DNA of 35,598 nucleotides from Solirubrobacter deserti (lineage in GTDB: Bacteria > Actinomycetota > Thermoleophilia > Solirubrobacterales > Solirubrobacteraceae): positions 1-35,598 of the forward strand of contig NZ_JAPCID010000071.1 of assembly GCF_027587175.1 (NCBI RefSeq), written 5' to 3'. Position numbers and translations under genes: made by a program. The notes under the pieces were generated by a model. It saw only the letters and a list, made by a program, of their open reading frames with translations, had not been told where the DNA came from and did not search any database. Below are positions 31,058 through 35,598 of the stretch, in pieces (the stretch's first letter is position 1; each line of letters starts with the position of its first letter).

Positions 31058-31516
31058 GTGCTGCGCTACCGCCATGTCCTCGTCGCGTTCGACGCCTCGC
31101 CGGAGGCCACGCTCGCCCTCGCCCACGCCGTCGCGATGGCGCAGGTGTACCGCGCGAAGGTCACGCTCGTCGCCGTCGTACCTCCGCCGCCGATGCTCGC
31201 GTGGCAGGCGCCGGGCGGGATGCGCGGCCTGCACGACGCGGAACAGCAGGAGCTCGAGAAGGCGCTGCGGGCGGCCGCGGACACCGTCCCCGACGACCTG
31301 TCCGTGACGACCCGGCTGCTCGACGGGGACCCGGCCCGGGAGCTGCTGGGCGTCGCCCGGGACGGCGACTTCGACGTGATCGTGATGGGCTCGCGCGGCC
31401 GCGGGCGGATGACCGCCGCGCTGCTCGGCAGCGTCTCCAACCGCGTCATGCACGACGCGGACGTGCCGGTGATCGTCATCCACCGACCGAGCGACGGGCC
31501 CGACCTTGCCGCATAG
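31058..31516 (+). CDS. Universal stress protein, single domain
   Basis: 152 aa from GTG 31058. A standard UspA domain: RYRHVLVAFDASPEATLALAHA at the start and the nucleotide-binding signature GSRGRGRMTAALLGSVS near the end, followed by ADVPVIVIHRP. The ATP-binding Gly motif is complete, so it likely binds ATP. CAGTAT (31046-31051) at the right distance for a -10 box suggests an almost leaderless mRNA; no ribosome site is visible. The arginase-fold gene begins inside its last codons, so the two are co-transcribed. Confidence 0.88.
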   Translation: MLRYRHVLVAFDASPEATLALAHAVAMAQVYRAKVTLVAVVPPPPMLAWQAPGGMRGLHDAEQQELEKALRAAADTVPDDLSVTTRLLDGDPARELLGVARDGDFDVIVMGSRGRGRMTAALLGSVSNRVMHDADVPVIVIHRPSDGPDLAA

Positions 31517-32300
31517 GGGCTGGACGGTCCTCGACGCGCCGTCGAACCTCGGCCTGCGGCAGCTGCGGCCGGGGGTCGAGCCGGGCGCGCGGCGGCTCGC
31601 TGACGCGCTCCGGGCGTGCGGGCTAGTCGAGCGGCTCGGCGGGCGGGACGCGGGGCGCGTGGAGGCGCCGCCGTGGACGTCGCTGCCCGAGAACCGGGCG
31701 AAGATCCCGGCCTACACGGTGGCGCTCGCCGACCGGCTCGGGGAGCTGCTGCGAGCGGGCGAGAAGCCGCTGGTGCTCGGCGGCGACTGCTCCATCCTGC
31801 TCGGGGCGATGCTCGCGCTGCGGCGGCACGGGCACTACGGGCTCGCGTTCGTCGACGGCCACCTCGACTTCCGGACCGAGAACGTGGACGCCGTTGCGGG
31901 CGAGGACCTGGCGGTCGTGACGGGGCGCGCCGAGGACGCGCTGGCCGACATCGACGGGCTGCGGCCGTACGTGCGCGACGAGGACGTGGTCGCCTACGGG
32001 GACCGTTCGGGTGATCGCGCGCCGGTGCGCGTCATCGACCTGGCGGCGCTGCGCGCGGGCGAGTGGGCGGTGCCGGACGTGCCCTACTGGGTGCACGTCG
32101 ACGCCGACGTGCTGCGTCTGGACGCGGTCGACTCGCCGCAGCCGGACGGGCTGTCCTACGACGAGCTGGCCGATGTGGTGCGGCGGTTGCTGCCGGGCGC
32201 GGTCGGGATGCAGGTGACGATCTTCGATCCCGACCTAGACCCGGACGGCAGCGCGGCCGCCGCGCTCACCGACTGCCTCGTGCGCGGCGCCCTCCCGTAG
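31506..32300 (+). CDS. Arginase/agmatinase-fold (ureohydrolase) protein with altered metal ligand
   Basis: 264 aa from TTG 31506, overlapping the stress-protein gene by 11 nt. The ureohydrolase fold and its metal motifs are in order: GGDCS (Asp94, Cys95), DGHLD (Asp117, His119, Asp121) and HVDADVLR. In arginase and agmatinase the first motif is GGDHS, where the His is a manganese ligand; here it is Cys. The last motif (DPDLDPDG) is also atypical. It may bind other metals, or hydrolyse another guanidino or amidino compound. It is shorter than typical arginases (about 300). Its last 66 bases overlap tail to tail with the cydDC gene. Confidence 0.85.
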   Translation: MPHRGWTVLDAPSNLGLRQLRPGVEPGARRLADALRACGLVERLGGRDAGRVEAPPWTSLPENRAKIPAYTVALADRLGELLRAGEKPLVLGGDCSILLGAMLALRRHGHYGLAFVDGHLDFRTENVDAVAGEDLAVVTGRAEDALADIDGLRPYVRDEDVVAYGDRSGDRAPVRVIDLAALRAGEWAVPDVPYWVHVDADVLRLDAVDSPQPDGLSYDELADVVRRLLPGAVGMQVTIFDPDLDPDGSAAAALTDCLVRGALP

Positions 32301-35300
32301 CTCGATCACGCGGTCGAAGCGGTCGAGGTGGGTCGGATCGTGCGTGATGAGGATGAGCGTGCGGTCGGTGCGCAGGATGTCGTCGATCAGGGCGTGGGCG
32401 GTCGTGGGGTCGAGCATCGCGGTCGGCTCGTCGAGAATCAGGATCTCGGCGGGGCTGAGCAGCGCGCGGGCGAGCCCGATGCGCTGGCGCTGGCCGCCGG
32501 ACACGGCGATCCCGTCCTCGCCCAGCGGCGTGTGGATGCCGTCGGGGAGGGCGCGCAGCCAGTCGGTGAGGCCGGCCTGTTTGAGCGCGTGCTCGACGTC
32601 GGTGTCGGTCGCTTCGGGCCGGCCGATGCGGACGTTCGCCGCGATCGTGCCCGCGAGCAGGTGCGCGTCCTGGCCGGCGAGCCGGATGCGCTCGCGCGTC
32701 TGCTGCGTGGGTGCGTGCCTGAGGTCGACGCCGCCGAGGGCGACGGTGCCGTGCTCCGGGTCGGCGAGGCGGGCGAGCAGGTCCGCGAGCGTGGATTTGC
32801 CGGCGCCGGACGGGCCGACGATCGCGACCCGCTCGCCGGGGTGGACGGTGAGGTCGAGGCCGGTGAGGACGTTGGGGCCGCCGTAGGAGTGGGTGATGTT
32901 CGTGGCCGTGAGCGTGGCGTCGCGCGGGAGCGGCTGATCGCCGCTCTCGGTGAGCTGCGGCGGGCCCTGGGTGGCGGTGTCGAGGCGCTCGCGCGCGGCG
33001 CGGACGCCGATCAGCCGCAGCGCCGCCTCCGGCAGCGCCGCGGGCGTCTCGAACGCACCGACCGTGAGCAGCGCGAGCGCGCCCAGCCAGACCGTGGCGA
33101 GATCGCTCGCGGCGCCGACGCTCAGGACGGCGGCGAGCGTCGCGCCCGCGGCGAGCGTGCTCGCGGTCGCGCCGAACGCGGCCGCGCGGGCCTGACCGCG
33201 TTCGATGCGGGCGAGCCGGCGGCTCTGCTCGGTCAGCGCCTGAAGGCGCCGCGGCCCTTGCCCGGCGACCGCGAGCTGCGGGCCGAGCGTCAGCGCCTCG
33301 ACGAGCTGCTCCCCGAACGCGGCGCGGGCTTTGCCGGGGGACGCGTGCCGGGCGAGCGCGTGCGCGGCGAGGGGGATGATCGTGGTGGCCGTGATGAGGC
33401 CGGCGGCAACGGGGAGCGCCGCCGCGGGCAGGATCGCGGCGGCGGCGATCACGACCGCCACGGACGTGATGCTCGCGACGGCGGCGGGCAGCACGACGCG
33501 TGGGTGACGGTGCTGCAGCTCGTCCACGTCGCTGGTGAAGCGCGTGAGCAGGTCGGCCTCGCCGGGCAGGCCGGGTCGCCCGATTCGCGCGGCGAGCGCG
33601 TTGAAGAACGCGACGCGGGTGGCGGCGAGCTGGCGCAGCGCGACGTCGTGCGAAGCGAGCCGCTCGTAGTAGCGCGCGATCGCGCGCGTGAGCCCGAGCG
33701 CCCGCACCGTGACGATCCCGACGAGCAACGCCAGCACGGGCGGCTGCTCCGCCGCGCGGGTCACGAGCCAGCCGCTCGCGCCCAGCAGCGCGAGCGCCGA
33801 CAGCGTGCCGACGACGCCGAGCGCGATTCCGGCGCCCTTCGGCCACGGCTTGGCCGGAGCGGCCGCCGCAGCGCCTCGCACCCTCAACCCCGCCCCAGAA
33901 CATAAAGAGGGACTGTCCCTCTTTAGGTTGCGCAGCGAACCGCGGCCCACAGCGTCCACGCGATGTGCCCGCAAAGAGCGACTTTCCCAGCGCTCCGAAT
34001 CTAAAGAGGGACTGTCCCTCTTTAGATTCACGACGACGTCGCAGATCGAGGCGAGGCGCTCATCGTGGGTCGCGACCACGAGGGTGCGGCCGCGGGCGCG
34101 GGCGAGGATGCCCTCGGCGACGCGGCGCGCGGAGGCCTGGTCGAGGTGGGCGGTCGGCTCGTCGAGCAGCAGCAGCGGCGTATCGGCGCCGAGCGCCGCG
34201 GCGAGCGCGAGGCGCTGTTCCTGGCCGCGCGAGAACCGGCGGCCTCCCGCGCCCACGCGGGTGTCCTCGGCCTCGACCACGTGGGTGGCATCCGCCCACG
34301 CCAGCGCCGGCTCGGCCCCGTGCAGGCGCAGCGCCTCGCCCAGCGTGCCCGTCGGCAGCGGCGGGCGCTGGTCGAGCCAGGTGACCTCGCGCCACCACGC
34401 CTGGCGGTCCGTGTCGCGGAAGTCGACGCCGCCGCTGGTGATCGTGCCCGCGTCGGGGTCCTGCACACGGGCGAGCAGCCGCAGGAGCGTGGACTTGCCG
34501 GCGCCGGACGCGCCGACGAGCGCGACCGACGTGCCCGGCTCGATGCGGAGGTTCAGGCCGTGCAACGGGTCAGGGCGGCCGTGGCCGTCGACGCGGACGT
34601 CGCGCAGCTCGATCGCGCCGAGGACGGGCGCGGCCGTGCCGGCGGGCGCGTACGGCGCGGGCTCGTCGAGCAGGTCAAAGATCCGCTGGACGGCGACCGC
34701 ACCGTCCTCGGCGGCGTGGAAGCGCGCGCCCGCGGCCCGCAGCGGCGCGTACACCTCCGGCGCGAGGAGGAGGATGAACAGCCCCGTCGCGAGGTCCATC
34801 TGCCCCTGCGCGAGGTACACGCCGGTCACGGCGGCGGCGATCGCCGTGCCGAGCATCGCCAGCAGCTCCAGCACGAGCGCGCTCAGGAACGCCACCCGGA
34901 GCGCGCCCAGCGACTCGTCCCGGTAGCGCTCGCCGACCGCCCGGAGCGACGCCGCCTGCGCCTGCTCGCGGCCGTGCGCCCGCAGCGTCGGCAGGCCGCG
35001 GACGACCTCGAGGAAGTGCGCGCCCAGGACCGCCAGCGCGTGCTGGCGTTCCCACACGTGCTCGGCCGAGCGCTTGCCGACCAGCACCATGAACACGACC
35101 ACGACCGGCAGCGTGATCGCGAGCAGCGCGCCGACGACCAGCTCTTGGGTCGCGATGACCGCGACGACGCCGATCGGCACCGCTGCGGCGAGTGCCAGCT
35201 GGGGCACCGCGCGCGCGTAGTACTCGGCCAGCGCGTCGACGCCCTGCGTCGCGGCGGTGGCGATGTCGCCCCGGCGCGCGTCGCGGGCGCGGCCGGCGAG

Positions 35301-35561
35301 CGCGCGCTCGGCCACGAGCTCCCGCAGCCGCGCGAGCGCGAGCTCCGCCGCGCGGCGCCCCGCAAGCTCCACGACGCCGCTGAGCAGCGCCCGCCCGGCC
35401 ACGACCGCGAGCAGCGCCCACGCGAGCTCGCGGGTCGCGACCGCGTCCGCCACGAACCAGGCCTGCACGACGAGCAGCACGGCCGCAGCGAGGCCCGCGC
35501 CGACGGCGACGCCGAGCGCAACCCGCGCCCGCGGCGCGACGTCGAGGAGCCGCCGGTACAC
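32235..35561 (-). CDS. cydDC: Fused CydDC-type ABC exporter (thiol exporter for cytochrome bd assembly)
   Basis: 1108 aa from GTG 35561. The frame stays open to the right edge, so the true start may lie beyond. CydD half: TM helices (about 13-290), Walker A GASGAGKST, signature FSRGQEQ (weaker than LSGGQ), Walker B LLLLDEPTAHLD and H-loop ATHD. CydC half from about 570: TM helices, Walker A GPSGAGKST, signature VSGGQRQ, Walker B LILDEPTAMLD and ITHD. CydDC exports glutathione or cysteine to the periplasm and is needed to assemble cytochrome bd; cydAB would be expected upstream, outside the window. The linker (about 512-553) is made of repeat-derived residues with NLKRDSPSL twice. An internal GTG at 33881 could start CydC separately. 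Confidence 0.92.
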   Translation of the reverse strand: MYRRLLDVAPRARVALGVAVGAGLAAAVLLVVQAWFVADAVATRELAWALLAVVAGRALLSGVVELAGRRAAELALARLRELVAERALAGRARDARRGDIATAATQGVDALAEYYARAVPQLALAAAVPIGVVAVIATQELVVGALLAITLPVVVVFMVLVGKRSAEHVWERQHALAVLGAHFLEVVRGLPTLRAHGREQAQAASLRAVGERYRDESLGALRVAFLSALVLELLAMLGTAIAAAVTGVYLAQGQMDLATGLFILLLAPEVYAPLRAAGARFHAAEDGAVAVQRIFDLLDEPAPYAPAGTAAPVLGAIELRDVRVDGHGRPDPLHGLNLRIEPGTSVALVGASGAGKSTLLRLLARVQDPDAGTITSGGVDFRDTDRQAWWREVTWLDQRPPLPTGTLGEALRLHGAEPALAWADATHVVEAEDTRVGAGGRRFSRGQEQRLALAAALGADTPLLLLDEPTAHLDQASARRVAEGILARARGRTLVVATHDERLASICDVVVNLKRDSPSLDSERWESRSLRAHRVDAVGRGSLRNLKRDSPSLCSGAGLRVRGAAAAAPAKPWPKGAGIALGVVGTLSALALLGASGWLVTRAAEQPPVLALLVGIVTVRALGLTRAIARYYERLASHDVALRQLAATRVAFFNALAARIGRPGLPGEADLLTRFTSDVDELQHRHPRVVLPAAVASITSVAVVIAAAAILPAAALPVAAGLITATTIIPLAAHALARHASPGKARAAFGEQLVEALTLGPQLAVAGQGPRRLQALTEQSRRLARIERGQARAAAFGATASTLAAGATLAAVLSVGAASDLATVWLGALALLTVGAFETPAALPEAALRLIGVRAARERLDTATQGPPQLTESGDQPLPRDATLTATNITHSYGGPNVLTGLDLTVHPGERVAIVGPSGAGKSTLADLLARLADPEHGTVALGGVDLRHAPTQQTRERIRLAGQDAHLLAGTIAANVRIGRPEATDTDVEHALKQAGLTDWLRALPDGIHTPLGEDGIAVSGGQRQRIGLARALLSPAEILILDEPTAMLDPTTAHALIDDILRTDRTLILITHDPTHLDRFDRVIELREGAAHEAVGERGGRAAVRV
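33903..33925. repeat. 23-bp REP-like palindrome, copy 1 (inside cydDC)
   Basis: Arms TAAAGAGGGAC and GTCCCTCTTTA around a single central T: a perfect palindrome with 11-bp arms. It is identical to the copy at 34002-34024. Read on the minus strand it encodes part of NLKRDSPSL in the cydDC frame. The base composition is AT-richer than its surroundings. It resembles the GGGACxGTCCC-centred palindromes scattered in many bacterial genomes and associated with REP-type transposases (from memory). Confidence 0.85.
33973..33988. repeat. Degenerate third copy of the palindrome unit
   Basis: AAAGAGCGACTTTCCC matches the corresponding 16 bases of the intact copies with two mismatches and lies between them. 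In the cydDC frame it gives WESRSL where the intact copies give RDSPSL. So all three copies are in the same reading frame and orientation. It is probably an older, decayed unit. Confidence 0.6.
34002..34024. repeat. 23-bp REP-like palindrome, copy 2 (inside cydDC)
   Basis: Same 23 bases as the copy at 33903-33925. Here one more base pair on each side matches (C at 34001, G at 34025), giving 12-bp arms. The copies are 99 bp apart, a multiple of 3, so both are read in the same frame. The minus-strand context AAYCTAAAG is also shared upstream, making the direct repeat about 27 bp. Confidence 0.85.
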
Positions 35562-35598
35562 GGCGTTGGCCGCGCCCGGCCCGCGCCGCGCCCCGCCG

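What the first reader, a model, noticed from the sequence alone, without database searches (positions are those of the whole stretch)
33903..34025. REP-like palindrome cluster translated as the linker of the CydD-CydC fusion
Two identical 23-bp palindromes (11-bp arms around one base) sit 99 bp apart, with a decayed third copy between them, exactly at the junction of the CydD and CydC halves. All three are read in frame, giving RDSPSL twice and WESRSL once. Mobile palindromes normally avoid genes. Here the insertion appears to have been domesticated as a flexible inter-domain linker, or even to have created the fusion by removing the cydD stop. The mRNA would also form a strong hairpin between the two halves, which could tune CydC output; an internal GTG at 33881 lies just past it.
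Basis: partly seen in the sequence, partly recalled or inferred. Interest (0 to 1): 0.75.

Follow-up and report, generated by a model that had tools for sequence, protein, structure and literature searches.

The report
Mobile palindromes translated inside CydDC linker
A short DNA palindrome that appears to be spread by a transposase in this soil-bacterium genus sits in frame between the two halves of a transporter protein, at a place shared by four species; it is a well-preserved case of a kind of in-gene palindrome that is already known.

Summary
Two 23-bp palindromes (33903-33925, 34002-34024) lie in frame in a fused cydD-cydC gene, in the gap between the CydD and CydC domains. They belong to a repeat family: 41 exact 21-bp copies in the genome, 57 sites with decayed ones, found in 5 of 146 family genomes, all of one genus. 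Four IS200-like (RAYT-type) transposases have the palindrome on both sides and group together in the tree. So "mobile palindrome" is well supported. "Created the fusion" is not: another genus has the fusion without palindromes. The copy at 33903 is at the same site in four species (75-79% protein identity, one copy worn); the copy at 34002 is absent from the three congeners. The "third copy" aligns with an ordinary conserved linker segment. cydDC is not unique: at least 15 of 57 sites lie inside genes, several at the same place in other species. In three genes, rare codons inside shared palindromes are kept 56/56 times against 6/81 elsewhere, so the DNA itself seems to be maintained. In the species without the matching transposase only 1 of 11 sites is exact. 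In-gene REPs are published (PMC3733652); retention across species is the added point.

The parts
32235..35597 (-). fused cydDC gene (thiol reductant ABC exporter CydD-CydC), 1120 codons inside the window; the 5' end may lie beyond the window edge
34023..35525 (-). CydD domain (TIGR02857, residues 25-525)
32334..33836 (-). CydC domain (TIGR02868, residues 588-1088)
33903..33925 (.). palindrome copy 1; translated LKRDSPSL (residues 558-565); at the same site in G003 and G004 (exact) and G001 (worn)
34002..34024 (.). palindrome copy 2 (perfect arms extend to 33997-34029); translated LKRDSPSL (residues 525-532); not at that place in G001, G003, G004
33973..33988 (.). partial resemblance to the unit (14 of 16 bases); aligns with the conserved non-palindromic linker of congeners
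33930..33989 (-). non-palindromic linker segment from W to G-S-L-R (residues 537-556), alignable in the four species

Best explanation
The two palindromes are copies of a non-autonomous palindromic repeat found in part of one genus (Solirubrobacter, by the one named record) and linked to one group of IS200-like (RAYT/TIRYT-type) transposases. One copy entered the interdomain linker of an already fused cydDC gene, most simply before four species split; a second copy came into the same linker later, in this species. Both lie in an open reading frame of the palindrome (LKRDSPSL) and in a spacer between folded domains, so the gene stayed intact and the repeat became part of the linker. Shown: membership of the repeat family, transposases flanked by it, reading frame, linker position, a site shared by four species, and better preservation of the DNA than codon drift predicts. 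Inferred: that the transposase moves and renews the copies, the order of events, and that the protein tolerates the insert rather than uses it.
For: Genome-wide copies: 41 exact, reversed control 0. Found in 5 of 146 family genomes, all one genus. Of 10 Y1_Tnp genes in five genomes, 4 have the palindrome on both sides and these 4 lie together on one branch, support 100/99. One species has a 42-45 bp insertion in a histidine kinase gene where four relatives have none. CydD model ends at residue 525 and CydC starts at 588; the palindromes are residues 525-532 and 558-565. Same site in four species with homologous flanks. Rare codons in shared palindromes kept 56/56 (cydDC, POP, APH; pairs without G001) against 6/81 outside in the same genes, and 104/648 over 219 gene pairs. 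In-gene doublet spacings are multiples of three in 7 of 7, other doublets in 7 of 12. G001 has no transposase of the flanked group and 1 exact copy in 11 sites, against 41/57, 17/27 and 41/53 in G000, G003, G004.
Against: No experiment. G001 is a single case of transposase absence, and where its amino acid is unchanged its palindrome codons are still mostly kept (22/28 inside, 40/99 outside). Sites compared with palindrome-free relatives do not all show a clean insertion: POP has the same length as its G005 relative, and the cydDC 34002 site has the same length as in congeners. The flanks are not constant and no GTAG/CGTC tag is seen. The counts of the codon test are two-way and not independent. 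G003 and G005 also carry transposases outside the flanked group, so a link of the family to that group alone rests on position.
Confidence: 0.85

Rival explanations
1. The palindrome is a fixed binding site (for a chromosome-organising or regulatory protein) kept by selection; the transposases are bystanders that happen to carry it.
For: Perfect long palindrome, exact DNA kept at orthologous sites even in genes.
Against: The four flanked transposases group together. Copies are missing in two genomes of the same genus, G002 and G005. There is an insertion seen in one species only. Few exact copies in G001, which lacks the flanked group.
Confidence: 0.15
2. The palindrome pair forms an mRNA hairpin that tunes how much of the CydC half is made.
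For: The 161-nt sense RNA folds at -80.7 against -57.81 +/- 3.93 kcal/mol for shuffles, z -5.82.
Against: Any perfect palindrome folds well. The second copy is absent at that place in three congeners and the shared copy is worn in G001. No terminator-like site; the internal GTG is not conserved.
Confidence: 0.08
3. An ordinary linker whose amino acids are selected; the DNA palindrome is incidental.
For: LKRDSP is retained in all four species compared.
Against: 41 exact copies in the genome, most of the 57 sites outside genes or at their ends. Rare codons are kept, including TTA, seen in only 13 other codons of about 212,700 in the called genes of the loci.
Confidence: 0.03
4. The palindrome created the CydD-CydC fusion by removing the cydD stop.
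For: It sits at the junction.
Against: G033 of another genus has a fused CydDC in one frame without it. At gene 3' ends the palindrome supplies a stop rather than removing one (43 of 46 such genes end in TAA).
Confidence: 0.02

Closest known systems
TIR repeats of TIRYT genes (tyrosine transposases flanked by inverted repeats; Di Nocera et al. 2013, PMC3733652; passages seen)
   Same: Dispersed repeat, in part self-complementary, flanking an IS200-like tyrosine transposase; single and doublet copies; the A-centred strand reads AGGGACAG, 7 of 8 positions of their GGGGWSAS motif.
   Different: Found here in Solirubrobacter; copies at orthologous in-gene sites in several species. Whether the transposase has TIRYT or RAYT signatures was not tested.
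GTAG/CGTC-tagged REPs with in-gene copies (same paper, same passages)
   Same: In-frame single and double copies inside genes; the authors already suggest flexible linkers or loops.
   Different: No constant GTAG or CGTC tag here; long near-perfect palindrome with a one-base centre. The passages seen do not compare orthologous in-gene sites between species; the whole text was not read.
Rickettsia palindromic elements, RPE (passages of the review PMC10969869; original papers not seen)
   Same: Palindromes inserted in frame in many genes.
   Different: RPE are about 150 bp; this unit is 23-33 bp and lies beside a group of transposase genes.
REPIN/RAYT systems (PMC8049555, one passage)
   Same: REP doublets (here often 75-78 bp apart) and a RAYT-type transposase.
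   Different: The single palindrome is near perfect by itself and occurs often as a singlet.

Membership tests
RAYT-associated palindromic repeat (REP in the wide sense) | Dispersed short palindrome, many copies per genome | tested here: met
   41 exact; 109 matches on both strands at up to 2 mismatches; reversed control 0
RAYT-associated palindromic repeat (REP in the wide sense) | IS200-like Y1 transposase gene flanked by the same palindrome | tested here: met
   4 of 10 Y1_Tnp loci in five genomes, on one branch of the tree
RAYT-associated palindromic repeat (REP in the wide sense) | Transposase mobilises the repeat | not testable with these tools
   needs biochemistry; one insertion with empty relatives is indirect support
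GTAG- or CGTC-tagged REP | Constant GTAG or CGTC tetranucleotide at one end | tested here: not met
   within about 14 bases of either end: GTAG 6, CTAC 1, CGTC 21, GACG 13 of 135 copies; no chance value computed
TIR repeat of a TIRYT gene | Inverted repeats flank the transposase gene and carry GGGGWSAS | tested here: inconclusive
   Flanking met; main form fits 7 of 8 motif positions; motif taken from a figure legend
TIR repeat of a TIRYT gene | TIRYT amino-acid signatures of the transposase | not tested
   the published alignment is in a supplementary file that was not available
Rickettsia palindromic element | About 150-bp element encoding a conserved peptide, in frame in genes | tested here: not met
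   unit is 23-33 bp; only the in-frame position agrees
Fused CydDC exporter | CydD and CydC models both over cut-off in one frame | tested here: met
   665 and 630.9 bits, cut-offs 435 and 329.05

The most novel reading that the evidence does not exclude
The transposase does not only spread the palindrome but keeps re-copying or correcting it at old sites, even inside protein-coding genes, so that a selfish DNA sequence dictates a linker peptide and its rare codons over species-level time. Where the matching transposase is missing (G001), exact copies are nearly gone. Same-length replacement at two sites (cydDC 34002, POP) would fit overwriting by single-stranded copies rather than simple insertion.
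Probability: 0.3. Interest if true: 0.75.

Novelty: new variant of a known kind. Interest (0 to 1): 0.5.

Why it matters
It gives a natural test set for an open question: what keeps short mobile palindromes intact for long times. The same in-gene site can be compared in species with and without the matching transposase, with codon usage as the yardstick. It also shows that linkers between protein domains in a high-GC soil bacterium can consist of repeat DNA.

Tried and rejected
Fusion created by the palindrome: rejected, since G033 is fused without it. Third decayed copy: left open; non-random but collinear with a conserved linker segment of congeners. Internal GTG start at 33881: not conserved in three congeners. 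Promoter or terminator in 33600-34300: none. GTAG/CGTC tag: none constant. Symmetric change of the arms as proof of a kept stem: weak. Outer arms match more than shuffled in the pooled set (which mixes species with different arms) and at 4 of 6 positions in G000 (p 0.009-0.03), but at only 1 of 6 in each of G003, G004 and G001; at core pair 4/16, 5 of 148 copies are symmetric variants and 34 asymmetric.

Codon test. Rows dropped before the 56/56 and 6/81 count: MocR and ADH (their stop-to-stop frames run into neighbouring genes, which raises the outside value) and all pairs with G001, so EamA too. With MocR and ADH kept, pairs without G001 give 80/82 inside and 70/169 outside; pairs with G001 give 22/28 and 40/99. 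Each pair is counted from both sides, and pairs are not independent.

Site survey. The home-made gene finder missed two MocR genes and the true start of an ADH gene; these were read by hand. An earlier pass gave 28 intergenic, 17 overlapping and 10 inside of 55. The site lists were drawn a little differently: G000, G001 and G003, G004; more decayed sites were not looked for, so the worn state of G001 may be understated.

Net length against palindrome-free relatives, by eye: +14/15 aa at the histidine kinase, +4 to +8 at ADH, +2 at a glycosyltransferase, 0 at POP (G000 and G003 against G005; G004 and G001 +1), 0 to -1 at cydDC 34002. Later small deletions, or a relative that has itself lost a copy, could explain the low values. 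For two further genes (LuxR-type, MFS) the relatives' frames were not found by the script, so one search gives no comparison.

Full report
What was claimed.

Check. Both palindromes are there (33903-33925 and 34002-34024), 99 bp apart, and the second has perfect arms of 16 bp. The 21-bp core is not expected by chance in the window (0 in 100 shuffles). One open frame of 1120 codons reads through both and gives LKRDSPSL twice. The protein matches the CydD model at residues 25-525 and the CydC model at 588-1088, so residues 525-532 and 558-565 fall in the gap between domains. The same 3363 bases are found unchanged in a larger scaffold of another assembly, Solirubrobacter sp. CPCC 204708 (L184); it may be the same strain, but it speaks against an assembly error.

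A repeat family. The home genome has 41 exact copies of the 21-bp core and none of the reversed control. At one or no mismatch the 23-bp form is found in 5 of 146 genomes of the family, all in this genus: the home genome, a second genome of the same species and three congeners, G001, G003 and G004; G002 and G005 of the same genus have none. Exact copies share about 23 near-invariant bases, softer CC/GG next to them, and then ends that differ between species; no GTAG or CGTC tag is constant.

Transposase. Y1_Tnp genes: three in the home genome and seven in four of the five congeners searched (G002 has none). Four of these ten are flanked on both sides by the palindrome: two in G000, one in G003, one in G004. 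The four lie together on one branch of the tree, support 100/99. G001 has one Y1_Tnp gene, outside that group and unflanked. Its palindromes are worn: 1 exact of 11 sites, against 41 of 57, 17 of 27 and 41 of 53 in G000, G003 and G004.

Where copies lie. For the 57 sites of G000 the gene finder called 30 intergenic, 16 at a gene 3' end, 10 inside and 1 near a start. Reading by hand moved 4 sites (two MocR-like genes) and 1 (a zinc-type dehydrogenase) into genes, so at least 15 lie inside and 25 between genes. Genes cover 91% of the window by the same finder, so genes are still avoided in bulk. Over four genomes 46 of 148 sites are at a 3' end, and 43 of these genes stop with TAA. Some in-gene copies lie between domains: CydD/CydC, GntR/aminotransferase in two MocR-like regulators, and Wzy_C/TPR. 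Others lie inside a matched domain, for example the amidase, the APH-type protein and one MFS transporter. In-gene doublets have spacings that are multiples of three in 7 of 7, others in 7 of 12; part of this follows from requiring an open frame.

History at cydDC. G003 and G004 carry the exact palindrome, and G001 a worn one, at the site of the copy at 33903, with homologous flanks; their proteins are 75-79% identical to this one. At the place of the copy at 34002 the congeners have 13-14 other residues; G004 has its own extra tandem copy next to the shared one. A CydDC of another genus, G033, is fused without any palindrome. So the fusion most likely came first. The third piece, 33973-33988, is closer to the unit than chance allows but is collinear with a conserved linker segment.

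Other in-gene sites. The same site is occupied in two or three species in a prolyl-oligopeptidase-type protein (POP), a MocR-like regulator, an EamA transporter, a zinc-type dehydrogenase and an APH-type protein. In a histidine kinase gene one species has 42-45 extra bases holding the palindrome, where four relatives have none: this is the cleanest sign of mobility.

DNA-level upkeep. Nine codons typical of the palindrome are rare in these genomes. Outside palindromes they are kept between species in 104 of 648 cases when the amino acid is the same (219 gene pairs). In cydDC, POP and APH, pairs without G001, they are kept in 56 of 56 cases inside shared palindromes and 6 of 81 outside (MocR and ADH left out because their frames run into other genes; full numbers are under Tried and rejected). 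Conservation of the peptide alone does not explain this. Either the DNA is selected, or the transposase system keeps renewing it. The scarcity of exact copies in G001 favours the second, but G001 is one genome, and in its pairs codons with unchanged amino acid are still kept in 22 of 28 cases inside and 40 of 99 outside.

What it is. It works like a RAYT-linked REP or TIR repeat that has entered coding sequence. GTAG/CGTC tags, the mark of the best known REPs, are absent, so it is not filed there. It resembles the TIR repeats of TIRYT genes (7 of 8 positions of their GGGGWSAS motif; passages of PMC3733652), but the transposase signatures were not tested. In-gene REPs, and the idea that they sit in flexible linkers, are in that paper; RPE are a further precedent (passages of PMC10969869). 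The search for Solirubrobacter with palindrom* listed 8 of 8 papers, whose titles concern other subjects. The lists were cut at 15 of more, while (14 papers; 8 papers) were complete; none of the titles listed names this palindrome. Apart from passages in three papers, only listings were seen. The name MocR is recalled, not from a call.

Function of the linker. Nothing here shows that the palindromes do anything for CydDC. The RNA folds strongly, but there is no sign of a terminator or promoter, and the internal GTG is not conserved. The most likely state is a tolerated passenger in a spacer.

Noticed in passing
L101 (G000 C96), L035 and L036 (cydDC of G003, G001), L112, L130 and others: A second palindrome, GCRACANNTGTCGC, abuts the 23-bp unit on one side at 18 of 148 sites (4/57 G000, 5/11 G001, 9/27 G003, 0/53 G004); a third, like AGGGGTCTGACCCCT, is seen nearby in L114, L121, L118 and L133.
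   Followed up: partly
46 sites in loci of G000, G001, G003, G004: At 46 of 148 sites the neighbouring called gene ends in the palindrome; 43 of these genes stop with TAA.
   Followed up: partly
window 33903, 34002 and in-gene copies in the LKRDSPSL frame: 15 of 28 TTA codons in called genes of the fetched loci lie in palindromes; loci were chosen around palindromes, so the share is biased.
   Followed up: no
L082, L120, L115, L165: One zinc-type dehydrogenase gene carries the palindrome near its start in G000 and G003 and at another place in G001 and G004.
   Followed up: partly
L219 and L223 (POP); window 34002: At two in-gene sites the palindrome stands in for a stretch of equal length in palindrome-free relatives instead of lengthening the protein.
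   Followed up: partly
window 31506-32300: A reading frame that looks arginase-like overlaps the 3' end of cydDC by 66 bases on the opposite strand; its family was not tested.
   Followed up: no
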